A stretch of DNA of 64,000 nucleotides from a virus. The first letter of the stretch is position 1. Each line of letters opens with the position of its first letter. The DNA is taken from the IMG/VR virus record IMGVR_UViG_3300035703_000012, positions 64,001-128,000 of that record, one strand, 5' to 3'. Positions 58-23,454 of this stretch are shown piece by piece. The notes beneath the pieces were generated by a model that saw only the letters and a list, made by a program, of their open reading frames with translations, ran no database searches and was not told the origin of the DNA. A program made the translations under genes and the position numbers.

Positions 58-116
58 GGCCACAGGGCAATTCTGGGCGCATCCAGACAGCCCAGAAAAG
101 GGTGGCGCCGCCTTGC

Positions 117-122: not shown

Positions 123-128
123 AGGGCC

Positions 129-3100
129 ATGAACCCCTTGGGTCGCGACCGCCTGCAGCCCGACCAGAACCCGAGCCTGCGCTTCCTCGAGCGCGGGCTC
201 TACGACGCCCTGGGCCACCAGAGCCTGCTCGACGACGGCCTGCAGGACAACGAGCGCTCGCTCGAGTCGCTCTCGGAGTCCGAGTCCGACCGCTTGGGCC
301 AGCAGCTGCTGGCCGAGTCGCGCCTGAGCCGGCCCGACGGCCCCGACCCGGGTCGGGCGGACTGGTTCAAGGAGGTCGGCAACCTCTCGGTCGGGCAGAT
401 CGAGCAGCGCCTCTTGCGACGCGAGGGCCTGTCGCTCAGCGCGGATGGCATGCAGGTCACAGGCGCGTTTGGAACCCGCGACCTGGGCGTGGACGCTTAC
501 ATGGACCTGCAGAGCTGGCGTCGGCAGCTCGACAGAACGGTGCTGCAGGCCAACCGCAACGCCTGGACTCCGGAAGCTGTCAAAGCGGACCTTATGCAGC
601 GCCATCTGCCAGGCTCTGTTGTGCCAACCATGCGCTCCGGCTTGGCATTTGACGGTCACCTGCACCGGTACATGAACATTCTGCAAGGCGCTCAGACAGA
701 TGCGTATCTTGGACTGTTCATGGCAGAGCATCCCGCACTTGCCGCTGGAGCACTTGAAGCGCAAGACCGGAATGTTCAGGTTACGGTTAGAACCAATGCA
801 GCTTTCAACGAACGTGGTCAAGCTTTTGCGCGTGGTGTTTGGAGTCAGTTTAAAAACTACAGCACGGCGCCGTCCGGGATGACGGACCACTACAAGTTTG
901 CTTTAGGAGACATGCAAGATCCTCGGACAGCGCGTGCACTGCTGACCTCTGCCAACGCAACCATGGCCGCACTCGGTGGCGGCGTTCGGCGGGATAACTC
1001 CTTGGTTTCAATGGGGGCAAACTTCGAAAGCAGCGTCATGTTTTCAGCCGAGACGTTTAGCGACGGCGCGGTCTGGCTTAGCATGCACGAGCAGCTACAG
1101 GGCATGCAGCGGTGGGTGCAGTCGGGTGAAACAGACCTCGTCGAAAAGCTGATTTTAGACCAACGTGTCTCGGCCGCACTGGACCTCACCAAGACTGAAG
1201 ATATACGGCAAGCCCTAAGAAACGCGCAAAATCTTATGGGCAGCCAGCTTATGGATCAGTTTACTGGCTTGCAAAAAACAGGCGCCAGCCGAATCTTGTC
1301 GGGCAGTGGCGTAGCAGCAGCGCATAGACAGATGCTGCAGCAGCTGGGTCAAGGTGGTCGCGCGATTTTGGTCAGCTACAACTTTGGTCAAGACATCAGC
1401 AACGAAATAGAAGCAGCAGTTAGACGCGGAGCGGACGTCACACTGCTGCACGGCTCGCGCTGGGAGTTTGGGCAAGAGGGTGGACCCCGGCTTATCCACG
1501 CCACTGAACCAAAGCACAACTTGGACGCCTTGCAGCAACGCCTAGCAGACTCTCCCACTCCTGTTGCCGGAAAACTTACGGTTGTACAAAACGTCAGCAG
1601 CTTGGTGCACATTAAAGCCTCTGTGTTCGAAGCGCCTGGTCAGGCCGGCGTTTTTATTCCCAGCACCATGAACCTGGACGACAACCAGCTTCAAGGCCGC
1701 TACATGGAAACGGAGTACGACGGACCTATTCGCAACATCGGCGCTCTTCTGCCGGAAGGCGAGTACATCCCCTACCAGGAAAGCGTTCGAATGCTGGAGC
1801 GGCTTGTTAAAGTTTCAAGCTTGACCCGTACACTTGCAACAGGCACACAAACACTAGACAGCGCCGTACAGCAAGAACTGGCCAGGCTGCGAACAGAGTA
1901 CGGTCTGACAAGCTACCACGCCAGCTCCGTAAACTTGAACAAAGCTGACGACAACCATCTCAGCTTTAAGGTGGGCGGCACCTTCCGACTGGGAGAAGGA
2001 GTTGGCGCACTCCACATTGATCTTGGCAAGATCATGGATCTTACGGCCTACCGCCCGACCCAAGAAGCGGTCTCGCGGGGCTTTGGGCGCAGCACGACGG
2101 ACCTGTACGTGCCGCAGCTCTCCAAGTTCGTCAACTCCGTGCGGGGCGTCGGCTGGGCCACGTCGGACGATCCGCTGGTCGGCGACGCCCGGACGGCCTC
2201 GGGCCTCGAAGTGCTGGTGGCCGGCATCGCCGCGGCTCAGGCCCAGACCCAGGGCTACCTCAACGCGCTGGTCGACCTCGTGGGCACCGACATGGCCCAG
2301 CAGATCCTGCGCAACCCCTACGAGATGGGCCGGCTGCGCTTCACCATCCGCGAGTTCACCAAGGGCCGCTTCAAGAACTTCGCGGGCCTCGAGCCCGGCA
2401 CCCCCGCCTACGCCGCCAAGCAGTACGCCCAGCTGCTGATGCGCGTGGGCTCCAACGGCCTGCTCGACCTCAACAGCAGCATCGACCTCAACGCCGAGAC
2501 CCTCGACAAGATCCTGGCGGGCGAGCTCACGCGGGCCGACCTCGGCGGACGCAACTACCTGTTCACGGCGAGCGGGCTGTCTCGCTTCAACCGCTACGGC
2601 GACGCCAAGACGGCCCGCATGTACGACGTCGAGATGCTCAACACCTTGCCTGTGGCGGACTTCGACCAGCAAAACGACGACTTCATGTTCCTCATGCCGA
2701 TCGGCAAGCTGGCCCAGCTGCCCCAGCGGCTGCAGAACATCATCTCGACGCGCAATTTGACACCCGTCGTCGAGCAGGAGCTGCTGCAGCTGATGGGCAC
2801 GGACGACCCGCGTGAGCGCGGGCTCGTGGGGCTCAGCCGCTTCGTGGGCAACCGCGTGCGCGCCGCCGACCGCAAGCCCGTCATCCGCTTCCGCGGCTAC
2901 GCCGTGCCGGGCTTCTCTGGCGACCAGAACGCCTACTTGATGGGTGATGCCTTCGAGCACCTGTACCTGGGCAACGAGTCGTTCCGCAAAACCGTCAAGA
3001 TCACGAGCAGCACCGCCATTCCCACCGACATGGGCCGGCTCTTGCACGAGCAGCTCGCCGGTCTGGCCGACACCGCCGACAGCGGCGTGCACCGCCTGAG

Positions 3101-6100
3101 CGGCGACCGGTACTTCCTCAACGCCCAGGCCCTCGACGCGCTGGAGGCCAAGCTGGACCTGGCCGGGCACCGCATCGGCGACACCGGCATGCACATGCTC
3201 CAGCAGCTCGACCTGGGGCTTGCCGGCAAGGAGACGGCCGGCGTGCTGCTCGACCTGTCCAAGGAAGGCAGCGGCCTCGTGCGCACCTCCTCGGGCTGGG
3301 AGTTCACGCTGACGGGCGTGCCGATGGAGCGCATCACGTCGGGCTCGCGCAACCTGCTCGGCGCCAAGGTGCCCTTCGTGATGGCCCTGCGCGAGTCGCG
3401 CTTCTTCCAGGGCATCGACCGACTGGCCCGGGCCATGTACGGCGACATGCCGGGCGGCGTGTACACTGGCCTCAACATGCAGGACTTCAACATCGTCTTT
3501 GGCATGGGCACGCTGAAGACCGGTCAGGTCTTTGTCGAGACGGGCATCGAGATGCTCGAGACGGGCATGTACAAGACCCAGCTGGCCTACTTGCGCAAGG
3601 CGCACAGCGAGGGCCTGGCCCCGCTGCGCCAGATGCAGACCGTCATCAACAAGCTGGCTTCGGGCGTGCAAAACCGCACGGTGCGCCGGGAGCTGGAGGC
3701 CGTGGGCGAGTCGCTGGGCAAGGAGAACTTCACGGACGCCGACTTCGACGCCTTCGAGCGCGTGCTGGACCGCACGGCCGATTACCTGGCCGACAGCCCC
3801 AACAACCTGATCAGCCTGCGCGGCTTCGGTCGGCGCCGGCACGCAGCCGCGGCCATGTTGGCTTTCGGCTTGCACGCCAGCTTCTCGCTCACGCGCCTGG
3901 ACAAGCTGTCGCAGTCACCGAAGGGGCACCAGCTCTTCGACGAGGTGCAGATGGGCGCGCTGGAGGCGCGCGACGGCGCCGGGCGCTTGATGCGCGAGCA
4001 GCTGCCCGACCAGCTGGTGTTCGGCACGATGTACCTGTCGTTCACCAGCAGCGCGAGCGCCCTGACGACGCCGATGTCGAGCCGCAACCGGGTGAACCTG
4101 CTGGCGTACCACCGCTCGAGCACGACGCAGGCCCTCTACGACATGATGGCGCGCTCGGAGGCGATGCAAGGCAAGATGGCGGCGTTCGAGGGCCTGATGG
4201 CCCACGGCCTGCTGGGGGCGGCCGGCGACATGCGCTTCGCCGAAGGGCCGCAGATCTTCTCCGACTACGTGCCCGGCTTGATGATCCAGCACGGCGGACG
4301 CCAGGTGGACCCGTACGTGGCGCTGCAGGATCTGCAAAACCGCATCGAAGCCGAAGCCTTGCACAACCGTCGCGAAGCGGCCCTCGTGGCACAGGAGCAG
4401 GGCCGCTCCATGCTCGGCCTGATGGGTGTAAGCGCCGAAGAGCAAGCCGAGCGCATGGGCCGTCTGCAAGGTCTGACGCAAGAAATCGACGAGGTTCACG
4501 CCAAGCTGCGCGGCGCCATCGCAGCGCTGCGGGGCGACGAGAGCGCGCCGGACGCGGACCGCAAGTGGGCCTACAAGAGCGTGGGCTCGGCGGAGTCTTC
4601 GCTCACGACGCGCACGCTGACGGCCGAGATCGAGGCCGGGGTGCGCACGCAGACGCTCCTGCTGCCGAACGTGGATCCGCGCAACCGAGGCGGGCAGCAG
4701 GTGAGCTACACGCCTGTGCAGTTCCTGTCGCGCGAGCACCTCATGAGCCTGGGTGCCTTCGAGGACTTCGCGCACGACGTCATCCAGCTGCAGGCCAAGG
4801 CGGGCCAGCTGCTCGGGCGCTTGGGCGGCATCCAGCGGCAGGGCCAGGTGTTCATGAGCACCATGAGCGAGCACGACAGCGACGTCTACGACGAGCTGAT
4901 GAGCACGGTGGGCAAGCTGCGCGAAGCTCAGCGCCTGGCGATGACCTCGGGCCTGCAGAAGCTCATCGGCGGCATGCTGGCGCTGCCGGGCACCAACATG
5001 GTCATCGGCACGCTGCCGGAGGTCGAGCTGGGCACGATGGTCGTCTCGGAGCGGGCTTACCAGGTGATGCGCACGGAAGCCGTCAGCGAAATGACGGCGA
5101 GCGTCGAGGCCAACGTGACACTTTTGCGCGAAGCAGCCGCGCAGCGCGGTGAAACGCTCAGCCGACGTCAGGCCACGGCCCAGGCGCTCGGCTTGCTCTT
5201 GAGCGGCGTCAACCGCGAGCTGCACGGCGCGGTGAACGGCTTGCAGCAGATGCTGCTGGACCAGTTCGAACAAGGCTTTACGGCCGAGAACGCGTACCAA
5301 GAACAAATCGACGAACTGTCACTGCAGCGCGACCAGCTAACGCTGGAGATGGATCTGTACCGCCAAAGCATCTACGGCGAAGGCGGTATTGCCGCAGAGT
5401 GGCGAGCGGAAAAAAAACAGCTCGAACGCAAGGCCATGCGCGCAGCTCGACAGCTGGTGGGTTACAACAAAGCCCAGACACAGCTGCATGCAGAGCACCG
5501 CGCAAAGCAGCAGCAGGGGCGTCAGGCCTACCAGGCGCAGCTGCGCGCGCTCAACACGGCCTACGAAAGCCGTCTGTCTGCGCTGGAGGCAGATGCCAAC
5601 GACTTCTACGCCAGCGAGCTGGAGCCTTTGACAGCACTCGAAGCACAGGTCAACGAGTTGACACGTGTGCAGGTCGGCCGCTCCAAGGTCATCTACGCCA
5701 CTCAGCTGTCTCAAGAGCGGCTGGTGCGACTGCGTGACCGCATTGCAGTTCGCATGCAACCTTCGGCGGAAGAAACCTCGCTGCGCCGGGACCGCAGCCG
5801 GTTGCTGCGGCTGGCGGAGCAGCAAAAAATTACCAGCCGTCTCAGCACCGCACGGCATAAGATGCTGCAGCCGCTGCGCGAGCTGCACGGCCGCCAGACA
5901 CCCGCCAGCGCCGCGCAGCTGCGCGATGCGCTCGGCCGTGTGCGCACCCGCAGCAGCGAGCTCGACGCCCGCGAAGCGCAGCAACGCAGCCGCGCCGAGA
6001 GGGTAACCCTCGATGAGCTCCAGGCCACTAACCTCAGCCGGGAACAGCGCGACACCCTCAACGACATCGAGGCCTCGCTGGCCGACCTCGAGCTGGCCCG

Positions 6101-9100
6101 CACGGAAAAGATGTCTGCCTGGCTTGCACGCAAGCGACGCGCGCACGACCTGTTGATGCGCGGCTCCGTTCGGCTGCACGGCATGAAAGACCTGCAGGCG
6201 TCAGGGGCTGACGCCTTGCGGGCCGAGCGCGAGGCGTTGACGGCCCTGCGCGACGACGCCCGCGCGCGACACGCCGCCTACAAGTCGCTCAGCGCAGAGG
6301 CCCGCGGCATCATCGACCAGGACTTCGGCGTGGTGCGCCGAGCGGCGGACATGCAGCATGCGGCCCTGCGCAGCCGCGAGCAGCAACGCTTCGAACAAGA
6401 AAAGAAAGCGCTGGATGCGGGCTACCAGGACCAGCTGCGCGCCATGCGCAACCGCTTGCTCGAAGGACGGCAAACCGCTTTGAGCGACGTGACCGAAGAG
6501 GTTTTCGACCGCCTGACGGACCTGGCCGAGCTGAGCGGCAACAGCCCCGACGTGCTGCTCGGCGACTTCCGAGAAGTCGAGACGCTGCAAGAAACGCTGC
6601 AAGACCGGTTGCTGGGCGCTGCAGATGTGCCCCTTACAGCAGACAGCAAGCAGCTTCACCTGGCGCGTCAAGACACCGCGGTCGGCCAAGAACACCTTAA
6701 AGCCTACGGGGTCACCCTAAAGCCAACCATGAGTCCTGACAGCCAGCTCCTCGGCAACCCCGTGTCACCACCCGATGCAGTGGCGGCTCAGCAGGCCCGA
6801 GGCATCTTCAACCAAGCGGACCAGGAGCGCTACGAACAGATTCAACGCGAGGAGCAGCGCGTGCGCGACCACTTGCAAGGTCTGCGCAACCAGAAGAACC
6901 GACTGACGGCTGGTATACAGCAGCTGCGCCAGGCACGTCAGGGTCAAGGCCGCACGTCGGTGCAGCAGGTGCTGCAGAGCGTGCTGGGCGCCCTGGTCGA
7001 CAGCAACGAGACGGTCCGGGCCATCTTCATGCGCGGGGGCATGCAGCGCGCGGGCGCCCCGGTCGGTCCCGACGCCGTGCTCTACAGCCGGGTGGCGCGC
7101 CAGAGCGAGCTCAACCAGCGCAACCCCAACATCCGCATCGACGAGGCGCTCTCCACCCGCGGCGTGTTCTTCAACCTGGGCGCGATGGGCTTCTTCCTCG
7201 GCGACTTCGACGGCGACACCGGCTCCATCTTCAACCTGGCGGACTACACCCGCCTGCGCACGCTGGCCCTCTCGGGCGCGCCGATGAGCGAGGAGGACGC
7301 CCGGGTTTACCAGGACGTCGAGAAGCGCATGCGCATGGGAGCAGCCGAGCAGGCCTGGAGTTTCGCGCGCCACTACACCAGCCTTACGGAGGCCTTTGCG
7401 CCCGAGCGGTTCTTCTCGGACCTGCCAGGAGCCACGGGCAGCCTCGAGCAGGACCGCGAGCACTTCTTCCGGCTGGTGCAGCGCGCCGAGGCCGAGGTGC
7501 TCAAGCTGCCCAACGCCCCCTACAGCAGCCTGCAGGCCGCGCGCATGGCCATCCCTGACGCCCGGCAGCTGGGCGCCACGCTCTTCGGCGAGGGCTCCGC
7601 GGAGGCCGCGCAGTTCGCCGCCTTCAGCGACCGCGAGAAACAGGCCACCAACCTCGCCGAGAGCCTCAACCAGTACGTGGCCGAGATGCGCGAGACCCAC
7701 AACAAGTTCCTGGAGTACAGCCTCGACGCGCGGCACGAGGGCCGCAACGCCCGCGAGGTGTACCAGAGCTTCTTCCGCCGGGAGGTGGGCTCGAAGGCCT
7801 TCGCCGCGTCCGTGGCCGAGTTCGAGAAGGCCCTGAAAAAGGCCAGCGCCACCGTCAACGACACCTCCTTCAAGGACGGCGGCACGCTGAACTACAACGT
7901 GCTGGTCGGCTACTTCGTGCAGACCTCGTTCGCCAGCAGCCAGGTCATCTCGAAGGCCTTCGAGTTCTCGTACACGATGCAGCTCGCCTCGGACATGGGC
8001 TACGCCAGTGACATGGCCCGCGGGCTCTCGCAGGAGGTGGCCGGCGAGGCCCGCGACCTGCGCCAAGGCACCATCCTGATGCTCCAGCAGATGGCCCGCG
8101 AGGCCATCAAGCCCAAGGACGGCGGCGCCCAGGAGCTCGGCATGCTGCGCACGCTGCTCCAGGGCGCCAACCGCGACACCATCGTCGTGCGCTCCATCAA
8201 CCGCATCTTCGAGCGGCCGCGCATGAAGGGCCTCAACTGGCTCTCGATCCTCTCGACCGGCCAGACGATGCTCAACGAACGCGTGGACGCCGACGCGATC
8301 GCCCACCGCATCGCGCTCACCGCGGAGCCGCCAACCGCCACGCCCGTGGGCGCCAGCCCCGAAGCCGAAGCCCAGCTCGCGCCGGACGCAACGGCGCGCC
8401 CCAGCTGGCTCGAGCGTCTGGTCAACCTGGGCGTGAGGACGCTGGAGGCCAACGCCGACGTGCCGCGCGACATGACGTGGGAGGCCGTCTACGACGAGGT
8501 TTCCACCGCCGTCCGGGACTACCACAGCGGAACGGTCGAGGCCGCCTTCAAGAACGGCACAGGCCTGCAGCTCATCAACCTGAAAGAAGACCAGCTTGCA
8601 GGCATGGACGCCGAAGAGCGCAAGACCTTCATCAAGACCCAGACCGACAGCTACCTCGACCGGATCGTCGGCCGTCAGACCAACCTGGCCATCGAGATGG
8701 CGCTGTCGGCGCGTGGCGTGCAAGAAACGCTCAGCACCTACCGCCGGGGCATCACCAGCGGAGACGTCAACGAGGTCAACCAGCTCTCGGCCACCATGGG
8801 CCTGCAGGAGCGCGCGCTGGGCTTCTACGCCATCGCGGCCCGCGGCAAGTTCGTCGATGCGGACGCCGTGGAAGCCGGCATGAAGAACCTGTTCCAGGAC
8901 GTTGACCACCTGGAGCTGCCCGAGGCGCAAGAACGCCTGCGCAGCGTCGGCCGCGAGGTGACGGGGGCCAGCGCCTACGGCGACAGCCTCGCGCGCATCT
9001 ACGGCATCGTCCGCACCCAGGGCACGGACTTGCAGGCAGCCATTTACCGCAGCGGGGCCGAGGAGCGCCGGGTGGATGCCGGCGAGCGTCAGCAGGCACG

Positions 9101-10199
9101 GCGCTTCGCCGTGGCCAACCTCGCGGCCATCAACCAAGGCAACGCCGGCGACCTCGACCAGCTCAGCGACCGCCAGCTTTTCGACCGGCTGTCGCATCAC
9201 ACCGGGGCCTTGCACGAGCACCTGGAGAAGAACAACCAGGCGCACGAGATTCAGCGCCTGCAGCAGACGCAGAACCTGCTGGGCTTCACGGGGGCCATGG
9301 ACCACCTGGCGCAGGGCTACCAGGAGAAGCAGGCCGCAGCCCAGCAGGCCGCGGGGCAGACCAGCGCCCAGCAGCAGCACCGCACGGCCCAGGTGCTGGA
9401 CGCGGCGCTCAGCAACCCGCACGCCAACAACGCGATCTTCAACGTCGGCCTCGGCACCGTGATGGGCTTCGGGGCCGCCATGATGTTCGCACCTCCCGCC
9501 ATGGCCGCGGAGCAGGACACCATGGAGGGCCTCGGCAGCATGTTGGCCGCCACGCTGGCCTTCAGCAAGCCCTCCACGATGTACCGGCAGATCAACCGCT
9601 CGAACAAGGAAGAAAAAGAAAAGCTCGGCGAGACGGCGATGCTGACCGCAGCCCTGGTGGGCGGCATCGGCGGGGCCCAGCTCGGCACCATGGCGGCAAG
9701 CCAGCTCGCCGACAGCGTTTTCAACCCCGAAGACGAGCGCCACAGCCTGCGCACCCAGCGGCACCTGCGCAACAAGGTCCGCTTCGCAGGCGGCACGGGC
9801 GGCGCAATCGGCGGCGCGGTGGGCGGCACCGTGGCGGGCTTGTTGGCCCAAGGCCTGCTGCAGCGCGCGTTCAACATCGGCCCCGTCAACCCCATGGAGC
9901 AGATGATGCTGGGCGTGGCCGGCTTCTTGCCCGACAACGCCGACGAGATCCAGGCGGGCGACGAGTTCGTCGCGGAAGAGGAGGCGGGCATCAGCGTCAC
10001 GGGCACGCTCGAGCTCGTGGACGAGGCCGGGGAGTACATCGACCAGACCGTCTGGCAGGTCAGCTGGGCCAGCTTCGACGACGAGCACGGCTTCGAGGCG
10101 TTCGGCAGCCTCGTGGAGGGCGACCAGGACACCTACGTCAGCGGCATCAACTTCGAGGCGTACGCCGCCGAGGCGGACCTGCCGACCGAGCCGTTCTGA
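129..10199 (+). CDS. giant PLD-domain / RNA-polymerase-like protein (probable virion protein)
   Basis: 3,356 aa. Seen: two phospholipase-D HKD motifs, HYKFALGD at H254 and HIKASVFE at H494, each followed by a Asn-containing stretch, as in a complete bilobed PLD-type phosphodiesterase or nuclease. A DFDGD motif sits at residues 2359-2363 in the context LGDFDGDTGSIF. In double-psi beta-barrel RNA polymerases (beta', YonO, crAss-like phage enzymes) these Asp residues bind the catalytic Mg. Residues about 1720-2250 are long charged helices likely to form coiled coils. Near the C-terminus are two glycine-rich hydrophobic stretches (about 3110-3145 and 3220-3260), which fit membrane passage during injection. 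Inference: an injected virion transcriptase-like protein. The start was set at ATG 129 because of the -10 box; GTG 54 is also in frame. Bases about 600-2040 are lower in GC than the rest. Family membership rests on motifs only. Confidence 0.7.
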   Translation: MNPLGRDRLQPDQNPSLRFLERGLYDALGHQSLLDDGLQDNERSLESLSESESDRLGQQLLAESRLSRPDGPDPGRADWFKEVGNLSVGQIEQRLLRREGLSLSADGMQVTGAFGTRDLGVDAYMDLQSWRRQLDRTVLQANRNAWTPEAVKADLMQRHLPGSVVPTMRSGLAFDGHLHRYMNILQGAQTDAYLGLFMAEHPALAAGALEAQDRNVQVTVRTNAAFNERGQAFARGVWSQFKNYSTAPSGMTDHYKFALGDMQDPRTARALLTSANATMAALGGGVRRDNSLVSMGANFESSVMFSAETFSDGAVWLSMHEQLQGMQRWVQSGETDLVEKLILDQRVSAALDLTKTEDIRQALRNAQNLMGSQLMDQFTGLQKTGASRILSGSGVAAAHRQMLQQLGQGGRAILVSYNFGQDISNEIEAAVRRGADVTLLHGSRWEFGQEGGPRLIHATEPKHNLDALQQRLADSPTPVAGKLTVVQNVSSLVHIKASVFEAPGQAGVFIPSTMNLDDNQLQGRYMETEYDGPIRNIGALLPEGEYIPYQESVRMLERLVKVSSLTRTLATGTQTLDSAVQQELARLRTEYGLTSYHASSVNLNKADDNHLSFKVGGTFRLGEGVGALHIDLGKIMDLTAYRPTQEAVSRGFGRSTTDLYVPQLSKFVNSVRGVGWATSDDPLVGDARTASGLEVLVAGIAAAQAQTQGYLNALVDLVGTDMAQQILRNPYEMGRLRFTIREFTKGRFKNFAGLEPGTPAYAAKQYAQLLMRVGSNGLLDLNSSIDLNAETLDKILAGELTRADLGGRNYLFTASGLSRFNRYGDAKTARMYDVEMLNTLPVADFDQQNDDFMFLMPIGKLAQLPQRLQNIISTRNLTPVVEQELLQLMGTDDPRERGLVGLSRFVGNRVRAADRKPVIRFRGYAVPGFSGDQNAYLMGDAFEHLYLGNESFRKTVKITSSTAIPTDMGRLLHEQLAGLADTADSGVHRLSGDRYFLNAQALDALEAKLDLAGHRIGDTGMHMLQQLDLGLAGKETAGVLLDLSKEGSGLVRTSSGWEFTLTGVPMERITSGSRNLLGAKVPFVMALRESRFFQGIDRLARAMYGDMPGGVYTGLNMQDFNIVFGMGTLKTGQVFVETGIEMLETGMYKTQLAYLRKAHSEGLAPLRQMQTVINKLASGVQNRTVRRELEAVGESLGKENFTDADFDAFERVLDRTADYLADSPNNLISLRGFGRRRHAAAAMLAFGLHASFSLTRLDKLSQSPKGHQLFDEVQMGALEARDGAGRLMREQLPDQLVFGTMYLSFTSSASALTTPMSSRNRVNLLAYHRSSTTQALYDMMARSEAMQGKMAAFEGLMAHGLLGAAGDMRFAEGPQIFSDYVPGLMIQHGGRQVDPYVALQDLQNRIEAEALHNRREAALVAQEQGRSMLGLMGVSAEEQAERMGRLQGLTQEIDEVHAKLRGAIAALRGDESAPDADRKWAYKSVGSAESSLTTRTLTAEIEAGVRTQTLLLPNVDPRNRGGQQVSYTPVQFLSREHLMSLGAFEDFAHDVIQLQAKAGQLLGRLGGIQRQGQVFMSTMSEHDSDVYDELMSTVGKLREAQRLAMTSGLQKLIGGMLALPGTNMVIGTLPEVELGTMVVSERAYQVMRTEAVSEMTASVEANVTLLREAAAQRGETLSRRQATAQALGLLLSGVNRELHGAVNGLQQMLLDQFEQGFTAENAYQEQIDELSLQRDQLTLEMDLYRQSIYGEGGIAAEWRAEKKQLERKAMRAARQLVGYNKAQTQLHAEHRAKQQQGRQAYQAQLRALNTAYESRLSALEADANDFYASELEPLTALEAQVNELTRVQVGRSKVIYATQLSQERLVRLRDRIAVRMQPSAEETSLRRDRSRLLRLAEQQKITSRLSTARHKMLQPLRELHGRQTPASAAQLRDALGRVRTRSSELDAREAQQRSRAERVTLDELQATNLSREQRDTLNDIEASLADLELARTEKMSAWLARKRRAHDLLMRGSVRLHGMKDLQASGADALRAEREALTALRDDARARHAAYKSLSAEARGIIDQDFGVVRRAADMQHAALRSREQQRFEQEKKALDAGYQDQLRAMRNRLLEGRQTALSDVTEEVFDRLTDLAELSGNSPDVLLGDFREVETLQETLQDRLLGAADVPLTADSKQLHLARQDTAVGQEHLKAYGVTLKPTMSPDSQLLGNPVSPPDAVAAQQARGIFNQADQERYEQIQREEQRVRDHLQGLRNQKNRLTAGIQQLRQARQGQGRTSVQQVLQSVLGALVDSNETVRAIFMRGGMQRAGAPVGPDAVLYSRVARQSELNQRNPNIRIDEALSTRGVFFNLGAMGFFLGDFDGDTGSIFNLADYTRLRTLALSGAPMSEEDARVYQDVEKRMRMGAAEQAWSFARHYTSLTEAFAPERFFSDLPGATGSLEQDREHFFRLVQRAEAEVLKLPNAPYSSLQAARMAIPDARQLGATLFGEGSAEAAQFAAFSDREKQATNLAESLNQYVAEMRETHNKFLEYSLDARHEGRNAREVYQSFFRREVGSKAFAASVAEFEKALKKASATVNDTSFKDGGTLNYNVLVGYFVQTSFASSQVISKAFEFSYTMQLASDMGYASDMARGLSQEVAGEARDLRQGTILMLQQMAREAIKPKDGGAQELGMLRTLLQGANRDTIVVRSINRIFERPRMKGLNWLSILSTGQTMLNERVDADAIAHRIALTAEPPTATPVGASPEAEAQLAPDATARPSWLERLVNLGVRTLEANADVPRDMTWEAVYDEVSTAVRDYHSGTVEAAFKNGTGLQLINLKEDQLAGMDAEERKTFIKTQTDSYLDRIVGRQTNLAIEMALSARGVQETLSTYRRGITSGDVNEVNQLSATMGLQERALGFYAIAARGKFVDADAVEAGMKNLFQDVDHLELPEAQERLRSVGREVTGASAYGDSLARIYGIVRTQGTDLQAAIYRSGAEERRVDAGERQQARRFAVANLAAINQGNAGDLDQLSDRQLFDRLSHHTGALHEHLEKNNQAHEIQRLQQTQNLLGFTGAMDHLAQGYQEKQAAAQQAAGQTSAQQQHRTAQVLDAALSNPHANNAIFNVGLGTVMGFGAAMMFAPPAMAAEQDTMEGLGSMLAATLAFSKPSTMYRQINRSNKEEKEKLGETAMLTAALVGGIGGAQLGTMAASQLADSVFNPEDERHSLRTQRHLRNKVRFAGGTGGAIGGAVGGTVAGLLAQGLLQRAFNIGPVNPMEQMMLGVAGFLPDNADEIQAGDEFVAEEEAGISVTGTLELVDEAGEYIDQTVWQVSWASFDDEHGFEAFGSLVEGDQDTYVSGINFEAYAAEADLPTEPF

Positions 10200-11820: not shown

Positions 11821-11842
11821 AAATCTGGGTTAACCCAGATTT
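11821..11842. promoter_or_regulatory. perfect palindrome, copy 1 (operator-like)
   Basis: A 22-bp perfect palindrome with core ATCTGGGTTAACCCAGAT. The same core is found at 11871-11892 and 21132-21153, with a near copy at 54199-54214. Recurrence at distant sites suggests a binding site for a dimeric protein. Confidence 0.6.
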
Positions 11843-11870: not shown

Positions 11871-11892
11871 AAATCTGGGTTAACCCAGATTT
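11871..11892. promoter_or_regulatory. perfect palindrome, copy 2 (operator-like)
   Basis: Identical to the palindrome 50 bp to the left, as part of the 42-bp direct repeat. The 50-bp spacing is close to five helical turns, so both sites would lie on the same face of the DNA. Confidence 0.6.
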
Positions 11893-12481: not shown

Positions 12482-12571
12482 GGGAAGCTGCGTCGCACAC
12501 GCTGGGCATCGCGCGCCAGCAGCACGGCTTCCCACCCCACAGGGCCACTTCCGCAAGGAGGTGGCCCTTTT
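12482..12571 (+). ncRNA. structured RNA element with terminator hairpin, copy A
   Basis: An outer stem GGGAAGC / GCTTCCC (12482-12488 / 12527-12533) encloses a small GCG-T-CGC hairpin and a GCTGG..CCAGC hairpin. A GCAA-loop terminator follows: GGGCCACTTCC / GGAGGTGGCCC, then TTTT (12542-12571). Copy B at 18164-18255 keeps the loop sequences and the pairing while stem bases change together. It lies 33 bases before a gene whose paralogue follows copy B. It could be an attenuator-type leader or a small RNA gene. Confidence 0.7.
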
Positions 12572-12604
12572 CGCGTCTTTGGACGCAGGAAAGGCGTATC
12601 TAAA

Positions 12605-13507
12605 ATGTCCGCACTAAATGCGCTGTTCGCAGCGCTGCGGGAGTTCATCCTCCCCGAAACGGCCTGCCTGGAGGCCCAGGAGGAGACCCTTGCCACCCCG
12701 GTGGGCGGCGCCGTGGTGGTGTACAACACCACCGCCTCGTTCGACCAGGACGAGACGGTGGTCTACACCATCTCGTCCGGCAAGGCCGGCGAGGGCCGGA
12801 CCTCGACCGGCCGGGTGTGCCACGGCCTGGAGGGGGGCATGGTCGTGGGCCCCTCTCGGGGCGGGAGCACCAGCTCCCCTATGCTCAACGGGTACCTCAT
12901 GGCCATCGACGGGGACACCCGTGCCACCGTGCACGGTGTGGCCATCCGCGGCCACAGCTACCCCGACGGGCTCTACGCCCGCTTCGGGGTGGAGCTTAAC
13001 CTGAGCCAGAGCGCCTACAACGCCCTGGCCCGCGCCATCCGGGGCAAGGCGGAGTTCCAGCTCCGCATCACGGCGCTGCGGGGCGCCTACGGGGTGAACA
13101 ACAAGAAGTTCAACCCCGATCTCGGGGGCGAGTTCACGGAGTACGTCTACGGGCGTGTCCGTGAAATGCGCTCCCCGGTGGAGCCCATCCGCATCGAGGT
13201 CCTCTACCCGGGGCACCCCGAGTGGGTCGTCCCAACGGTCGAGGCCGTCTCCCGCAAGGGGGTCTACGGCACGGGCACCCGGGCCCAGGCCCGTCGGGCG
13301 GCCGACCTCGCCCAGGTCTTCGCCAACCTGGGCACGGGGGCTTCGGCTCCTGTGCCCACCCCCACCCCGACGGCGGCCACGGCGGCTCCCACCCAGGAGC
13401 CGGCCGTGACGCCGGCGGCCGACGCCACGGCGGACGCCGAGGCCCAGGCCCTGCTCGACCAGCTGATGGGGCAAGCCCCTGAGGCTGACGAGCCCGACCT
13501 GGGCTAG
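12605..13507 (+). CDS. unknown protein, paralogue A flanking the RNA-polymerase-like gene
   Basis: 300 aa, no recognised family. It aligns with the 279-aa product of 18282-19121 along most of its length. Shared landmarks are VVYT near 55-60, DGDT..ATVHG near 100-110, DGL.ARFG near 120, YGVNNK near 160, VSR.GVYGT near 215 and the C-terminal tail EAQA.LDQLMGQ. A Pro/Thr/Ala-rich linker separates the tail from the folded part. Start ATG 12605 is preceded by AGGAAAGG. Expression is probably shaped by the structured element and terminator just upstream. Placement on both sides of the polymerase-like gene suggests related work, but function is unknown. Confidence 0.85.
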   Translation: MSALNALFAALREFILPETACLEAQEETLATPVGGAVVVYNTTASFDQDETVVYTISSGKAGEGRTSTGRVCHGLEGGMVVGPSRGGSTSSPMLNGYLMAIDGDTRATVHGVAIRGHSYPDGLYARFGVELNLSQSAYNALARAIRGKAEFQLRITALRGAYGVNNKKFNPDLGGEFTEYVYGRVREMRSPVEPIRIEVLYPGHPEWVVPTVEAVSRKGVYGTGTRAQARRAADLAQVFANLGTGASAPVPTPTPTAATAAPTQEPAVTPAADATADAEAQALLDQLMGQAPEADEPDLG

Positions 13508-13648: not shown

Positions 13649-16600
13649 ATGTTCGAGCAGACGATCTTCGAGGACGGTTACGTCCTCGAGGTAATCACGG
13701 TCGAGGCAGACGAAGTTTGCCCGGCCGCCGACCTGGCCCTGGCGAAGGCCGAGAAGGCCGACGCCACGACACGGGCCAAGGCGCGCCGCAAGGCCCGCAA
13801 GGCCCGCAAGGCCCGCAAGGGCACCGCTGCCCAGGTCCTGGTGGACTTGGGCAACGCTCTGCGCAAGCGGGGCGTCAAGGTCGTCGCCGAGGCCAAGGCC
13901 AAGGCGGCGAAGGCCCCGAAGGCCAAGGCCCGCAAGGCCAAGGCCAAGAAGTCCACGCACCAGAAGGGTCTGGCGCGTGGCATCCAGATCCGGTCCCGCC
14001 TCGCCCGCAAGGCGAAGGCGGCCGCCAAGGTGCGGGCCTACGTGCCCACCTTGGTTCGCCTCGCGCGGGTGCAGACCCGTGCGGTCGGGGCGACCGGAAG
14101 AAAGGAGAACCTCGTGAATCCCAACAACCTCTACATCAACGGCCTGAGCGAGGCCGTGGAGGTGCTGAACCAGGTGTCCGACGACGTCGGCATCGGGTTC
14201 GACTTCTACAACTCCACCACGAAAGCCAGCGTGGTGGAGATCGCTAAGGGACGCCTGCCCAAGGAGTCCCACAACGTGCTCGTCCTCAACGGCGAGGTCG
14301 ACTACATCGACGATGCCACCTACGCCCTCGCGGTGGTGGCACTGACCTGCGGCGTTCCCCTCGTGGATCGTCCGGTCTTCGTCGACGGCGACATCGACGG
14401 GGTGGACAGCTACTGGGGTGACTGGGCGCTGTCCCTGCCCCAGTTCGACCCGCAGCACCTGAGCGGCAACGCGAAGGTGTGGGTGCTCCCGGGTACCGGT
14501 GGGGTGCTCGACGTGGAGGACGAAGCGAATGCCAAGTGGGTTCTCACCCCGCAGGCGTTCGTCAGTTCGCTCGTCGAGCGCTCGGTGATCGACCAGAAGC
14601 GGTTTGCTGCCATGCTTGCCCTCATGGGCGGCGAGAAGCACACCGTGAAGGGCAAGGTCGCCATGATCGTCCGCCGGGGTCGCGACGAGCTGGTCTTCCA
14701 GCCGGCCGACAAGACCCTGAACGGCAACCCGCTCCGCAACGGGTACTGGGTCGAGGGGCTCGACAACGAGGGTTACAAGGCCCTCTTCTGGGCGACCTGG
14801 TACGCGCTCACGGGCGAGTCGGGCAACACGATGAAGGGGCGCCTGGCGTTCCTGACCGAGTTGTTCGGCGACCCCGGCCACGGCGAGCTCCGGCTCGGCG
14901 CGGTGGGCGAGTACTACGGCAACCAGCCTGGCAAGCTGGTGGTGAAGGCCACGACGGAGACCCTCGGCTTCGAGGTCACCAACGGCGGGACCGACACCGT
15001 GCTTGAGATCCTCGAGCACTGCTACGGGCAGGAAACTCCGGTTACGGCGCTCCCGAGCCACCAGGTCGACAACGTCGCCATCGGCGAGTTGGCCTGCGCG
15101 GGCAAGGGCTTCGCGATCACCAAGAACGGGGACGACTTCACCGTCGTCACCCGGGTCCCCGCTTCCACGGAGATCAAGAAGGTGGTCAACCGGTTCGCCC
15201 TCATCAAGGCGAGCTGCGAAGCCGTGCTCAAGCACGGTCAGCGCTCGTCGGGGGTGGTCCCCAGCCCGGTCGCAACCCGCACCTCGGACGGAAGCCTGGT
15301 GCGCTTCCACGGCGTGAAGACGCGCGTCGCCATCATCGGTGACTGCGTGTCCTTCAACGACGGCTCCGGCACGGCACACCTGAGCGAGGATGCCACGATC
15401 ACGACGTACCGTGACGTGGTCCTCAAGGCCAAGGTCCCTGTCGCCGGCCTCGACGCCGACACCGCCATCTCCCAGGTGAAGGCCTCCACCTTCATCGCCA
15501 CGGAGTGCGCGGAAGGCGAGTACGCGTTCTCGGTCGAAGGCGCCCCGCGTGCCAAGAACCGGCGCAACGCTCGTCGCACCCCCGACCCCACCAAGGTCGA
15601 GTTCCGCTACGACGCCAAGTCCGAGACGGTCACGGTCCTCGTGCCGGCTCGGGAAGAGAACACCTCCGAGGTGGCGAAGTTCGCCAAGGAGGGCGTCAAA
15701 GCGGTCGGTCGCAACAACCCGCATCTCCGCGTCTTCGCCGCGGGGGATCGGAGCAAGGAGCTCGACGCCACCCTGTTCATCGGCCCGGAAGGGCTGAAGG
15801 GTCTCCACGAGAACATCCTGGAGATGGCGTGCTTCCGGTACGGCGTTGAGGTTGTGCGTCCCGCGCACAACGGAGCCCCGCCGGAAGTTCGGGACCTGGT
15901 CAACCGCCTGGTGGCGGACCCGGCGGCAACGCCGGAGGTCGAGGTGGTCTACGACAACCTCAGCCACGACCAGTACGAGCTCTACCGCCAAGAGCACTCC
16001 GGCAACCCGTCGTACGGGTTCTCGGAGGACAACGGCGTCTACACCATGACCTGGAAGGGTCGTGCGATCGTGGGCGACGTGGTGCTCGCGGTGGAGAACA
16101 CCCCAATCTACCTGTCGATGGGTCGCTCCAACCTCACGGTGGAGATGACCCTCGCGCTGTCCGCCATCAGCCCGGAGCTGGTGGCGTACTACACAGGCGA
16201 TCTAAAGCCCGAAGCCGTCATCGAGCTGCCCGCGGTCCACGCGGCGCTCTCCGCCATGGAGTACTTCCTGGTGTGGGCTGGTGGTGTGGATCCGTTCGAG
16301 CTGGCGGGTGACCCCCGTTTCTCCTCGGCGGAAGGTCGTCGGTACAAGGAGCGCTGCTTCGCGTTGCAGCGTCTCCTCAACTGTGTCAACGCGCGCACGG
16401 CCCCGGATGGCGTGCCTGTGTTCGAGGTGGATCCCACCGAGAACGCGAGCATCGACACCACGGGAACGGACCGGGCCATCTTGCGGCGCCTCGCCAAGGC
16501 GTTCAAGAACGGCCTCGTGTTCCGCTACCAGGGGCAGGAGGACCTGTACCTCGACTTCAACGCCATCCGAGAGATCGGACCGGTGGACGAAGACGACAAC

Positions 16601-18076
16601 GGGTTCTCGTACGTCGAGGAGTTGGCCGCCTTCGTGCGGTTCCTCGGGCGTGCGAAGTCGTTCGCTCCGGCAGTTCAGCAACGTAGGACGGAACGGTTCT
16701 TCAACCTGATGCGCAAGCATCTCACGTCCGCCGTGGCTGAGTCTCCTCGGTTCATCGCGAAGATGCTGCGGCCCATCCCGGCTCACGTCACGAAGGTGAC
16801 GACCATGAGCTGGGTGAAGCCCGGAGAAATCCGCATCAACCCCAACGATCCGCGTGTGCTCAGGGGCGAAATCCGCGAGGATGACGTCCTTATCAGTGAG
16901 CGCTGCCCGGTGTACTACCCGGCAGCAGGACAGGTTGTCCTCGACGCTCGGATCAAGGTTGGCCTCTGGGCCGTGAACCCCCTGTGGTGGCATGCCGCCA
17001 ACGAGGGTGACGCGGACGGTGACCAGTTGTTCGCAGCCCTGGTGCCCGGCCTCCTCAAGGGGCACGTGCTCCGTCAGTTCGCTTCGGTGGGCTGGCTCAG
17101 CACGGACGGCTACTACCGGTTGCGCGCGGCAGGGTCGCTCCCCTTCCTCGACTTCGTTGAGGATGCGGCCGCCAAGAAGGGCTTCGCGAGCCACAGCTAC
17201 GACACCCTCCCCAGCGGGAAGCCGGGGGCGTTCCAGTTCTTCGAGGCTCCCCTCTCGAGCTGGCGCAACACGATCCGAGAGATCCAGCTGCAGTACAAGG
17301 TCCGGGTGGGGCAGGGCTACGCCCTCAAGCACCTGACGCTGTACATCCTGCTGGCGGCCAAGGCTTGCACGGGGTCCGACCCCGCGTTTGTCGAAGCCGC
17401 TGCGGAAGCCCACGTGGCTTGCGGCCGTTTGGTCTACGAGGGACTCGGCCTGGCCGGGTACACCGCGGAAGCCAAGGTGTTCTTCGACGCACTCCCGCGT
17501 CTCGCTTATGACGGCTTCGTGCTGGTCGAGCGTGCCGGGATGCCTCTCGAGGAGCGCTACTGCGTGGTCACGCAGGAGGAACTCAAGGAGCTCGAGCTCG
17601 GTCAGGATGACACCTGCTATCAGGGTACTTCCGCGCTGCAGCGCCTCTTCGAGGACTGCACCGGGTACCAGCTCTCAGAGCAGGCTGCCGAGATCGTCCG
17701 CATCGCGCGTCGCATCCACGTGTGCGCGCGGGACATGGCCAAGGGGAAAGAGAGCCCGAAGTTCAAGGACGAGCCCTTCATGGGTCTCACCTTGGGCTTC
17801 TTCGCGCCGATCGCTCAGATGATGCGTCATGCGTCGAAGGGTGAACTCGGTCACGGAGCCCAGGTGGACGCGGCTGTCGCTGCGTACACCGAGGGGTTCG
17901 GCTTCGAGGAGGGCCCGGTGGCCCTGGTGGACCTCGTTGACGAGCGGGCCGTCCGGTACTTCTTCGGGTCTGACCCGTTGGTGACCGGTCTGGTCTTCCG
18001 GGCGCTCAACACGCAACGGGGCATGCTCAACGCGCGACGCCAGCAGGCCGAGCGCAACAGCGTGTTCTTCGCGTAG
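13649..18076 (+). CDS. RNA-polymerase-like protein with double-psi barrel signature
   Basis: 1,475 aa as one open frame. Seen: HAANEGDADGDQLFAALVP with D1121, D1123 and D1125, close to the beta' catalytic motif NADFDGDQMAVHVP. The preceding 60 residues (GEIRINPNDPRVLRGEIREDDVLIS.. then RCPVYYP) match the spacing of the beta' segment just upstream of that motif. This fits single-chain two-barrel RNA polymerases such as YonO, not the T7 type. The first 155 residues are extremely Lys/Ala/Arg-rich, like a histone-H1 tail. An internal AAAGGAG-GTG at 14114 could start a 1,320-aa form without the tail. ATG 13649 has an upstream AAAGGGAA. Flanked by paralogues A and B. Likely job: transcribing phage genes. 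Confidence is high that it is a gene, moderate for polymerase. Confidence 0.72.
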   Translation: MFEQTIFEDGYVLEVITVEADEVCPAADLALAKAEKADATTRAKARRKARKARKARKGTAAQVLVDLGNALRKRGVKVVAEAKAKAAKAPKAKARKAKAKKSTHQKGLARGIQIRSRLARKAKAAAKVRAYVPTLVRLARVQTRAVGATGRKENLVNPNNLYINGLSEAVEVLNQVSDDVGIGFDFYNSTTKASVVEIAKGRLPKESHNVLVLNGEVDYIDDATYALAVVALTCGVPLVDRPVFVDGDIDGVDSYWGDWALSLPQFDPQHLSGNAKVWVLPGTGGVLDVEDEANAKWVLTPQAFVSSLVERSVIDQKRFAAMLALMGGEKHTVKGKVAMIVRRGRDELVFQPADKTLNGNPLRNGYWVEGLDNEGYKALFWATWYALTGESGNTMKGRLAFLTELFGDPGHGELRLGAVGEYYGNQPGKLVVKATTETLGFEVTNGGTDTVLEILEHCYGQETPVTALPSHQVDNVAIGELACAGKGFAITKNGDDFTVVTRVPASTEIKKVVNRFALIKASCEAVLKHGQRSSGVVPSPVATRTSDGSLVRFHGVKTRVAIIGDCVSFNDGSGTAHLSEDATITTYRDVVLKAKVPVAGLDADTAISQVKASTFIATECAEGEYAFSVEGAPRAKNRRNARRTPDPTKVEFRYDAKSETVTVLVPAREENTSEVAKFAKEGVKAVGRNNPHLRVFAAGDRSKELDATLFIGPEGLKGLHENILEMACFRYGVEVVRPAHNGAPPEVRDLVNRLVADPAATPEVEVVYDNLSHDQYELYRQEHSGNPSYGFSEDNGVYTMTWKGRAIVGDVVLAVENTPIYLSMGRSNLTVEMTLALSAISPELVAYYTGDLKPEAVIELPAVHAALSAMEYFLVWAGGVDPFELAGDPRFSSAEGRRYKERCFALQRLLNCVNARTAPDGVPVFEVDPTENASIDTTGTDRAILRRLAKAFKNGLVFRYQGQEDLYLDFNAIREIGPVDEDDNGFSYVEELAAFVRFLGRAKSFAPAVQQRRTERFFNLMRKHLTSAVAESPRFIAKMLRPIPAHVTKVTTMSWVKPGEIRINPNDPRVLRGEIREDDVLISERCPVYYPAAGQVVLDARIKVGLWAVNPLWWHAANEGDADGDQLFAALVPGLLKGHVLRQFASVGWLSTDGYYRLRAAGSLPFLDFVEDAAAKKGFASHSYDTLPSGKPGAFQFFEAPLSSWRNTIREIQLQYKVRVGQGYALKHLTLYILLAAKACTGSDPAFVEAAAEAHVACGRLVYEGLGLAGYTAEAKVFFDALPRLAYDGFVLVERAGMPLEERYCVVTQEELKELELGQDDTCYQGTSALQRLFEDCTGYQLSEQAAEIVRIARRIHVCARDMAKGKESPKFKDEPFMGLTLGFFAPIAQMMRHASKGELGHGAQVDAAVAAYTEGFGFEEGPVALVDLVDERAVRYFFGSDPLVTGLVFRALNTQRGMLNARRQQAERNSVFFA
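14101..14116 (+). promoter_or_regulatory. internal ribosome site and GTG start in the polymerase-like gene
   Basis: AAAGGAGAACCTCGTG gives an ideal Shine-Dalgarno and GTG start, in frame, exactly where the basic Lys/Ala-rich region ends. It could produce a second, tail-less protein. Confidence 0.55.
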
Positions 18077-18163: not shown

Positions 18164-18255
18164 GTGGGGGCTGCGTCGCACACACTGGGCACGCGAGCGC
18201 CAGTAGCACAGCACCCACACCGCCAGGGCCACCTCCGCAAGGAGGTGGCCCTTTT
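18164..18255 (+). ncRNA. structured RNA element with terminator hairpin, copy B
   Basis: Outer stem GTGGGGGCTG / CAGCACCCAC (18164-18173 / 18209-18218, one mismatch), the same GCG-T-CGC mini-hairpin, and inner stem ACTGG / CCAGT where copy A has GCTGG / CCAGC. The terminator GGGCCACCTCC-GCAA-GGAGGTGGCCC-TTTT is at 18226-18255. Paired changes relative to copy A support real RNA structure. It ends 26 bases before ATG 18282. Confidence 0.7.
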
Positions 18256-18281
18256 GGCGTTTGTCCAGAAAAGAGGACCCC

Positions 18282-19121
18282 ATGTTCCGTTTCCTCGCCA
18301 CCCTGCTGGGTGGCATCCCGGCGGCCGTCGAAGCCGCCACCATGCCCGAGGCCCCCACGGCCACGGGCCCCGTCACCCTCTACAGCTCCTCGGCCCTCGT
18401 GGCCCAGGAGGAGCTCGTGGTGTACACCCTGGCCCACAAGCCGGGTGGGCGAACCAAGACCAACACCGGCCGTCACTGCGTCGCCCTCCAGGGCGGCGAG
18501 CTGATCGGTCCGGCCAAGACCGGGGGTTCCTCCCCCATGGTGTATGGCCACGTTCTGGCCGTCGACGGTGACACGTTCGCCACGGTCCACGGCTTGCCCC
18601 TGCAGGGGCACGCTTACGCCGACGGGCTCCACGCCCGCTTTGGCATCGAGGGCAACCTCGACGAGCGCGCGTACACCCGGATCGCGGCGGCCCTGGGTCG
18701 CAACCCGGGGGCGCAGCTGCGCGTCACGGCGGTGCGCAGCCGCTACGGCGTGAACAACAAGCGCTACGACTCCCGCTTCGGCGGGGAGTTCGTTGAGCAT
18801 GCCTACGGGGCGGTCCGGGAGCTGCGTGCTCCCGTGACCATCCTCAAGGTGGAGCTGGTCCCTGAGGGGACCGACGGCTGGGTGGCCCCGGCCGTGAAGG
18901 CCGTCTCCCGCGAGGGGGTGTACGGCACGTCCGAGACCCCCAAGGCCCACAAGGCCGCGGACCTCAAGAAGGTCTTCGGCAGCCTGGGCCAGGGGCCGGT
19001 CTACGTGCCGGCCGCCACGACCGCCGCTCCCGCCAAGGAGCCGGTCGCCGCCCCCGCGGCTGACGAGGAGGCTCAGGCCATCCTCGACCAGCTCATGGGG
19101 CAGGAGCCCGACCTCGGCTAA
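18282..19121 (+). CDS. unknown protein, paralogue B flanking the RNA-polymerase-like gene
   Basis: 279 aa, paralogous to the product of 12605-13507 over nearly the whole length, including the DGDT..ATVHG, YGVNNK and EAQAILDQLMGQ blocks. The N-terminus (FRFLATLLGG) is mildly hydrophobic. ATG 18282 follows AAAGAGGA at good spacing; the frame is open to a TTG seven codons upstream. Function unknown. Gene and leader element were evidently duplicated together. Confidence 0.85.
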   Translation: MFRFLATLLGGIPAAVEAATMPEAPTATGPVTLYSSSALVAQEELVVYTLAHKPGGRTKTNTGRHCVALQGGELIGPAKTGGSSPMVYGHVLAVDGDTFATVHGLPLQGHAYADGLHARFGIEGNLDERAYTRIAAALGRNPGAQLRVTAVRSRYGVNNKRYDSRFGGEFVEHAYGAVRELRAPVTILKVELVPEGTDGWVAPAVKAVSREGVYGTSETPKAHKAADLKKVFGSLGQGPVYVPAATTAAPAKEPVAAPAADEEAQAILDQLMGQEPDLG

Positions 19122-19450: not shown

Positions 19451-19683
19451 ATTCCAGCTGGCAGGTCCCCACCCGGGGGCCTGCCGGTCGTCTTTCTTCC
19501 AGATGTCCAGGTTGCGTCAGCCTGCTGATGAAGGCCCTCTCGCAGGGGTCGAAACATCTGTGCCCTCCGTCGTCCCGCTCTCCGGTCCGGCCGCACCACT
19601 CCCACCCCGCCGCGTCCCACCTGCCCCTGCGGGGGCGTGCCTATCCCTCTAACTCGCCCGGTTCCCTTGTTCCCCTTCTTCCA
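19451..19683. other. gene-free stretch before the tandem repeats
   Basis: No supported frame. It has an inverted repeat around 19455-19490 (GGTCCCCACCCGGGGGCC) that may be a terminator, and a pyrimidine-rich run of GTTCCCTTGTTCCCC type leading into the repeats. Confidence 0.35.
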
Positions 19684-19935
19684 TAGTTCGTGAGGTGTGC
19701 AGTGGAACCGTTCCCTCTGTTCCCTCACGTTCCCTGGTTCCCGGATTCCCGGATTCCATAGTTCGTGGGGCGTGCAGTGGAAACGTTTCCGCTGTTCCCT
19801 CTCGTTCCCGGGCTCCCAGATTACCTGGTTCCCTGGTTCGTGAGGAGTGCAGTGGAAAAAGTTCCGCTCACTCCCCGCGTGACCTTGGTTCCCAGATTCC
19901 CGGGTTCCCTGGTTCGTGGGGAGTGCAGTGGAACG
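19684..19935 (+). repeat. 75-bp tandem repeat array in the leader of the next gene
   Basis: Four copies start with TTCGTGRGGNGTGCAGTGGAA at 19687, 19762, 19837 and 19913 (spacing 75, 75 and 76). After GTGGAA, each of the first three holds a short inverted repeat whose arms change together: GGAAC-C-GTTCC, GGAAA-CG-TTTCC, and GGAA with TTCC. Between copies are stretches of GTTCCCTGG / CCCAGATTCCC. The fourth copy runs into the ribosome site of the gene at 19957. It may be a translational or protein-binding leader. Confidence 0.75.
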
Positions 19936-19956: not shown

Positions 19957-20376
19957 ATGGACACCCTCAACAACCTGGCTTCCCAGGCTGACGAGCTCAC
20001 CTTGGTCGCGCAGGAGATCAACGTCCCTGTCGACGGGATTCTCTACATCGACGGCATGGCCGAAGATGTGAAGAAGACCGAAGGCGAGCGGAATATCACC
20101 TACGCCCGGGTCCGCCCCTTCGAGACGGGCGCCTCGTGCGTCGCGATCCTCGGGGTGCCTGAAGGCCGCATCCGCGGCATCCAAACCGGCACGTCGGCAC
20201 GGTTCCTGGTGACGCCCGTCGCCGGACAAGAGAACTTGTTCCGGTACGCCGGACACCAGCCTCTTGCCGTGGCCAGCCTGGCCGCGGCGGCGAAGCCCGC
20301 CAGGCTGGCGAAAGCCACGGACGTCAAGGACAAGCTGGCAGCCGCCGGCAAGGCCGCTCCCAAGGCCAAGCTCTAG
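19957..20376 (+). CDS. unknown protein with Lys/Ala-rich tail
   Basis: 139 aa. The body (residues 1-105) looks like a small beta-rich domain; the last 35 residues are rich in Lys and Ala, similar in style to the basic tail of the polymerase-like protein. ATG 19957 follows AAAGGAG. The gene is led by the 75-bp tandem repeats and followed by a strong terminator. No family recognised. Confidence 0.8.
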   Translation: MDTLNNLASQADELTLVAQEINVPVDGILYIDGMAEDVKKTEGERNITYARVRPFETGASCVAILGVPEGRIRGIQTGTSARFLVTPVAGQENLFRYAGHQPLAVASLAAAAKPARLAKATDVKDKLAAAGKAAPKAKL

Positions 20377-20420
20377 TAGCTTGGCCTTGGGCCCCCTGCC
20401 CGCAAGGGCGGGGGATTTTT
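20361..20420 (+). terminator. strong Rho-independent terminator pair
   Basis: A 12-bp hairpin over the stop codon (CCAAGGCCAAGC / GCTTGGCCTTGG) is followed by CCCCCTGCCC-GCAA-GGGCGGGGG-ATTTTT at 20392-20420. Confidence 0.85.
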
Positions 20421-20439
20421 CAAGTCCATACGGTGAACT

Positions 20440-21106
20440 CTTTGTCCTGGGCAGGACGTTAAACTGCAGCCCCTGCGCTGGCCCGCAGGTGAAACAAAGA
20501 GAGCCCTTGCCCCCGTCACCCCGGACGGATCGGCAAGTAAAGCAACATGGGGTATGGCCTCGAACAGCTCGGTTCCTTGCTGTGAGAGAAGAATAGCTGC
20601 CGGTCCAGGCCCTAAACGGACAAAGGAACCCACCCGCTCGCGGGTGAAAGGGAAGCTACCAGAATGTCAGGCATTAGCCTGCACAGCGCTGGTTAGAAAC
20701 ACACCTTACCGGGGTGCAGGGATTTGCCTGTACAACGCCGGTAAAACAACGGTTCGCAGACCTTCCGCTGCCCAAGCACCGGTGTCCTGGGCGGGACGTT
20801 AAATTGCCTCCTGCGCTGGCCCGCAGGCTAAACATAGCTCCCCCTGGACGGCGAACTTTCCAGGTTAAGCAGGATACAAGGGATGCAGGAGTTCCCATGC
20901 CCCTTGCGCGTGCAGCTTGATGCTTGCAGTGCACGCGTGTTGAGCAACGTCTAAATGCTCAAAGCATCACCCTGCGCTGGCCCGCAGGCTAAACAAAGAG
21001 AGCCCACCCGCGTGCACGCAGTCCTTGCACCGCACCGCTGGTGACACAGGCCAGGGGCCCTCGACGGAGTCGGCAACCGTCGAGGGCCACCGCCTTGAAG
21101 TTTTTT
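20440..21106 (+). ncRNA. hairpin-array region, candidate large structured RNA
   Basis: No coding frame is supported in this 750-base gap, but short perfect hairpins follow one another, most with TAAAC/GTTAAA just 3'. Module: GTCCTGGGC.GGAC + GTTAAA + CCTGCGCTGGCCCGCAGG + (C/T)(T/G)AAAC, at 20444-20494 and 20784-20832. A third copy of the second hairpin is at 20971-20988, preceded by GAGCA..TGCTC. A second repeated module CAGG.ATT.GCCTG occurs at 20668 and 20717. The region ends with a 12-bp stem GGCCCTCGACGG / CCGTCGAGGGCC (21056-21088) and T6 at 21101. Large ornate RNAs such as GOLLD and ROOL lie near tRNA genes in phages, as here, but identity is not established. Confidence 0.5.
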
Positions 21107-21131: not shown

Positions 21132-21153
21132 CCATCTGGGTTAACCCAGATGG
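21132..21153. promoter_or_regulatory. perfect palindrome, copy 3 (operator-like)
   Basis: A 22-bp perfect palindrome with the same 18-base core ATCTGGGTTAACCCAGAT as at 11821 and 11871, but different outer pairs (CC/GG in place of AA/TT). It lies 17 bases before ATG 21171, where a repressor could block transcription or the leader could fold into a hairpin. Confidence 0.6.
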
Positions 21154-23438: not shown

Positions 23439-23454
23439 CTTTCCCTGGTTCCCG

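What the first reader, a model, noticed from the sequence alone, without database searches (positions are those of the whole stretch)
12482..12571. Repeated structured RNA with covarying stems and terminator before two paralogous genes
The element here and at 18164-18255 shares its loop sequences, while outer stem (GGGAAGC/GCTTCCC vs GTGGGGGCTG/CAGCACCCAC) and inner stem (GCTGG/CCAGC vs ACTGG/CCAGT) change in a paired way. Both end in a GCAA-capped terminator 26-33 bases before the gene. This is the hallmark of a selected RNA structure: an attenuator, riboswitch-like leader or a small RNA gene not described to my knowledge.
Basis: partly seen in the sequence, partly recalled or inferred. Interest (0 to 1): 0.8.

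Follow-up and report, generated by a model that had tools for sequence, protein, structure and literature searches.

The report
Twin phage RNA leaders with terminators
A large phage carries two diverged copies of a folded RNA of about 90 bases, ending in a transcription stop signal just in front of each of two sister genes, which suggests an undescribed RNA switch that decides whether those genes are read; no other example was found in the collections searched.

Summary
Two ~90-base elements (12482-12571 and 18164-18255, + strand) share 82% of bases, while the genes behind them share 62% (53% at four-fold sites). Both fold as a bulged hairpin (P1/P2) followed by a GCAA-capped intrinsic terminator. 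Three P1/P2 pairs changed on both sides with pairing kept, one pair broke (G.A in copy 2), and all ten internal-loop bases are identical. Simulated chance of such compensation is about 3e-4. G.U pairs point to a + strand RNA. The terminators lie 33 and 26 bases before the start codons with no visible promoter between, so read-through looks obligatory. Three corrections: copy 2 is not fully paired; hairpins in front of ribosome sites are common across this locus and at the matching Fukuivirus (Ma-LMM01) locus, so only P1/P2 is special; and no mutually exclusive antiterminator helix is shared, which argues against a textbook riboswitch. No Rfam match and no copy elsewhere were found. The two genes flank an RNA-polymerase-like gene homologous to Ma-LMM01 gp064. 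Best reading: a cis-acting leader whose P1/P2 hairpin is bound by a factor or polymerase that controls terminator read-through. A separate terminated small RNA remains the main rival.

The parts
12482..12533 (+). Element 1, P1/P2 bulged hairpin (P1 arms 12482-12490 and 12525-12533; conserved internal loop CGCACAC; P2 GCTGG/CCAGC)
12542..12571 (+). Element 1, GCAA-capped intrinsic terminator and TTTT tract
   Evidence: score 27.1, fold -22.7 kcal/mol
12572..12604 (+). 33-base gap with ribosome site (AGGAAAGG); no promoter seen
12605..13507 (+). Gene A, 300 aa, no known family; acidic C-terminal tail; about 50% identical to gene B
18164..18218 (+). Element 2, P1/P2 bulged hairpin (one G.A mismatch in P1; P2 ACTGG/CCAGT)
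18226..18255 (+). Element 2, GCAA-capped intrinsic terminator and TTTT tract
   Evidence: score 38.1, fold -25.4 kcal/mol
18256..18281 (+). 26-base gap with ribosome site (AAAAGAGGA); no promoter seen
18282..19121 (+). Gene B, 279 aa, paralogue of gene A
13649..18076 (+). RNA-polymerase-like protein, 1475 aa, with ANEGDADGDQ motif; homologue of Ma-LMM01 gp064; lies between genes A and B

Best explanation
Each element is the 5' leader of its paralogous gene and works in cis on transcription. RNA polymerase coming from upstream first makes the P1/P2 hairpin with its invariant internal loop, then meets a strong intrinsic terminator; only transcripts that read through reach the ribosome site and the gene. 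Shown: the anatomy, selection on + strand RNA structure, the terminator-like sequence, and the lack of a visible or shared promoter in the gap. Inferred: that P1/P2 binds a factor (the paralogous proteins themselves, another phage protein, or polymerase directly, in the manner of lambda nut or HK022 put) which sets read-through, so that both paralogues are switched together.
For: Duplicate leader better conserved than the coding DNA behind it. Internal-loop bases 10/10 identical while stems change, with three compensated pairs. Terminator scores 27 and 38, among the three best of the 12 hairpins scored in the locus. The gaps of 33 and 26 bases are hardly alike between copies and hold no promoter-like site. 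Element 1 lies downstream of the divergent region between phoH (- strand) and gene A, where a first leader would lie. No element-terminator helix is common to both copies, so control by a bound factor fits better than alternative pairing. In the related phage Ma-LMM01 the early genes are gp054-gp063 and no phage-specific promoter motifs were found (PMC5780444); gene B takes the place of gp063.
Against: Only two sequences; no homologues to widen the covariation. No transcript data. The terminator could simply end transcripts from upstream. Host and promoters are unknown, and the promoter scan found no sigma-70-like site in the whole region, so it says little about absent promoters.
Confidence: 0.45

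Rival explanations
1. Discrete small RNA: each element is a small RNA gene of about 90 bases with its own promoter just upstream and its own terminator. Genes A and B are the next cistrons in a compact array and get their mRNA by read-through or otherwise.
For: P1/P2 and terminator fold independently into a compact two-hairpin RNA. Sequence similarity starts at the P1 edge. Terminator-then-ribosome-site spacing is the usual one between genes here.
Against: No conserved or sigma-70-like promoter just upstream. Both copies sit before paralogous genes, which suggests a link in cis.
Confidence: 0.22
2. Passive duplicate: a gene with its leader was duplicated; the hairpins act only as intercistronic terminators or mRNA 3'-end stabilisers, and the similarity is left over.
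For: Hairpins before ribosome sites are common in this locus and at the matching Fukuivirus locus. The paralogues were clearly duplicated.
Against: Leader 82% identical while four-fold sites in the genes are 53%. Compensated pairs and unchanged internal loop.
Confidence: 0.2
3. Small-molecule riboswitch with P1/P2 as aptamer.
For: Stem with an invariant asymmetric internal loop before a terminator; a possible 3-4 base pseudoknot between internal loop and P2 loop.
Against: No Rfam match at gathering cut-offs and only chance-level matches at E up to 10. No mutually exclusive helix shared. Genes have no metabolic family.
Confidence: 0.06

Closest known systems
HK022 put RNA (putL, putR)
   Same: About 70-base two-stem-loop RNAs, two similar copies per phage, near early genes that are preceded by terminators; act in cis on polymerase (PMC9378689).
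   Different: No sequence relation tested or seen; here the second stem is itself a terminator with a U tract; binding to polymerase is not shown.
Fukuivirus (Ma-LMM01) hairpin-CCCTTTTTCTTYTAGTG leaders
   Same: GC hairpin with variable stem, U tract, about 20-30 bases, then ribosome site, in a locus with the homologous polymerase-like gene.
   Different: No P1/P2 hairpin match; a different conserved tail sequence; many copies, not two.
Classical transcription attenuators and riboswitches
   Same: Structured leader followed by an intrinsic terminator before a gene.
   Different: No competing antiterminator helix shared by both copies; no known aptamer.

Membership tests
Intrinsic terminator | GC-rich hairpin directly followed by a U tract | tested here: met
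   11-pair stems, TTTT; scores 27.1 and 38.1; termination itself not measured
Riboswitch/attenuator of the alternative-pairing type | Mutually exclusive helix between sensor and terminator | tested here: not met
   No cross helix shared by both copies
Riboswitch/attenuator of the alternative-pairing type | Match to a known aptamer family | tested here: not met
   No Rfam match at gathering cut-offs; only chance-level matches at E up to 10
HK022 put RNA | Two stem-loops in the transcript of an early region | tested here: inconclusive
   Two stem-loops met; early expression unknown here, gene B only in the place of early gp063
HK022 put RNA | Binding to the polymerase beta' zinc domain and read-through in cis | not testable with these tools
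   needs transcription assays
Small RNA gene | Own promoter and discrete transcript | tested here: inconclusive
   No sigma-70-like promoter found; no RNA data

The most novel reading that the evidence does not exclude
A new class of cis-acting antitermination RNA in a phage lineage with its own polymerase-like protein: the P1/P2 hairpin loads onto the elongating polymerase (the host's, or the phage's polymerase-like protein encoded between the two copies) and makes it ignore the run of intercistronic terminators downstream.
Probability: 0.12. Interest if true: 0.75.

Novelty: new member of a known kind. Interest (0 to 1): 0.45.

Why it matters
How phages of the Ma-LMM01 group time their genes is open: a transcriptome study found host-like promoters in all three classes and no phage-specific motif (PMC5780444). 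A duplicated RNA leader with a built-in terminator, on either side of the polymerase-like gene, makes control by termination and read-through a testable answer in a distant relative of that group.

Tried and rejected
Exact and relaxed pattern scans of viral contigs and genome contigs: no true copy; the two genome matches and 18 relaxed viral matches lack the structure. Relatives of genes A and B by peptide patterns, tblastn, Pfam, PHROGs and PDB profile: none. Genes A/B against Ma-LMM01 gp065 and gp063 by profile comparison: no homology detected, only equal position. Structure prediction of gene A failed (mean pLDDT 34.6). First covariance model R1 had its structure shifted by one column and was replaced by R2. 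A shared leader peptide was considered and dropped: the 1-base indel in the P2 loop shifts any shared frame. A DNA operator was considered and dropped: P1 arm sequences change while unpaired bases stay. A consensus fold of the gp065 leaders of five Fukuivirus phages gave no compensated pair.

Full report
The window is bases 64001-128000 of a 168,796-base virus record with 66.5% G+C. Its portal protein and a 1475-aa polymerase-like protein (13649-18076) are distantly related to those of Microcystis phage Ma-LMM01 and its kin, genus Fukuivirus. The polymerase-like protein aligns with gp064 over 374 columns around the shared motif AANEGDADGDQ (27% identity, E 5e-20), which resembles the catalytic DxDGD motif of polymerases (from general knowledge; Pfam gave no match).

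Observation. The two elements exist as described. The core occurs only twice in the record and a covariance model built from the pair finds no third copy. Each folds as P1 (9-10 pairs), an asymmetric internal loop (CGCACAC on the 5' side), P2, then a terminator hairpin with GCAA loop and TTTT. The best third match, at 20357-20425, shares only a GCAA terminator and another stem.

Selection. The elements are 82% identical, the coding DNA of genes A and B 62%, four-fold sites 53%. In P1/P2 three pairs are compensated, one is a wobble change and one is broken. A simulation with 13 random substitutions reaches this in 0.03% of trials. The ten internal-loop positions do not differ. The pair-shuffle control is not significant (67/500), as it can hardly be with two sequences. 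U.G pairs in P1 and the terminator would be A.C on the other strand, so the + strand is the RNA.

Context. Hairpins that precede ribosome sites are usual here: before 13649, 19229, 21171, 22947, 23498 and 23996, although only some look like good terminators; elements 1 and 2 score 27 and 38, and of the 12 scored only the one at 23454 is higher. In Fukuivirus phages the matching locus has repeated leaders of a variable GC hairpin, then CCCTTTTTCTTYTAGTG, then a ribosome site and ATG; in Ma-LMM01 that motif with up to two mismatches occurs five times, all in this locus. Gene order also matches: gp065, gp064 (polymerase-like), gp063, kinase, against gene A, polymerase-like, gene B, and a kinase further on. 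Genes A and B show no detectable homology to gp065 or gp063, so this is equal position, not proof of descent. Hence the terminator is part of a locus-wide plan and the P1/P2 hairpin is the distinctive part.

Mechanism. No promoter-like site lies in the 33- and 26-base gaps, and the gaps are hardly conserved, so transcripts of genes A and B probably cross the terminator. No helix between P1/P2 and the terminator region is shared by the copies, and P1/P2 stays folded at all later lengths once complete. This favours control by a bound factor over alternative pairing. HK022 put RNA is the closest working parallel (PMC9378689); the parallel is an inference. A terminated small RNA is the main rival, and a passive terminator the next.

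Novelty. No Rfam family and no copy in the collections that could be scanned; close relatives of the record may be left out of those collections, and the metagenome collection could not be scanned. It is best called a new orphan member of the known kind 'structured phage leader with terminator'.

Noticed in passing
L016 (Ma-LMM01) 6503, 6690, 7399, 7721, 8520, 13616; also L023-L026: Fukuivirus phages carry a repeated leader: variable GC hairpin, CCCTTTTTCTTYTAGTG, then in some copies a TATAAT-like sequence, ribosome site and ATG, clustered around the polymerase-like gene. The published transcriptome reports no phage-specific motif.
   Followed up: partly
window 11825-11838, 11875-11888, 21136-21149; G000 51194 and 165270: Palindrome CTGGGTTAACCCAG occurs five times in the virus record with no match to the reversed control; possible regulator site.
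   Followed up: partly
window 20425-21060: Non-coding stretch with three copies of CCTGCGCTGGCCCGCAGG followed by AAACA, two of them preceded by a GTCC...GGAC hairpin and GTTAAA; another candidate structured RNA.
   Followed up: partly
window 19657-19933: Four tandem copies of about 75 bases with TTCGTGNGGNGTGCAGTGGAA before the gene at 19957.
   Followed up: no
window 54-10199: 3381-aa ORF with FLGDFDGDTGSIF, a DxDGD motif like that of polymerases; no phage match for its first half.
   Followed up: partly
L006 2511-3386: Integrase-like protein beside the portal gene.
   Followed up: no
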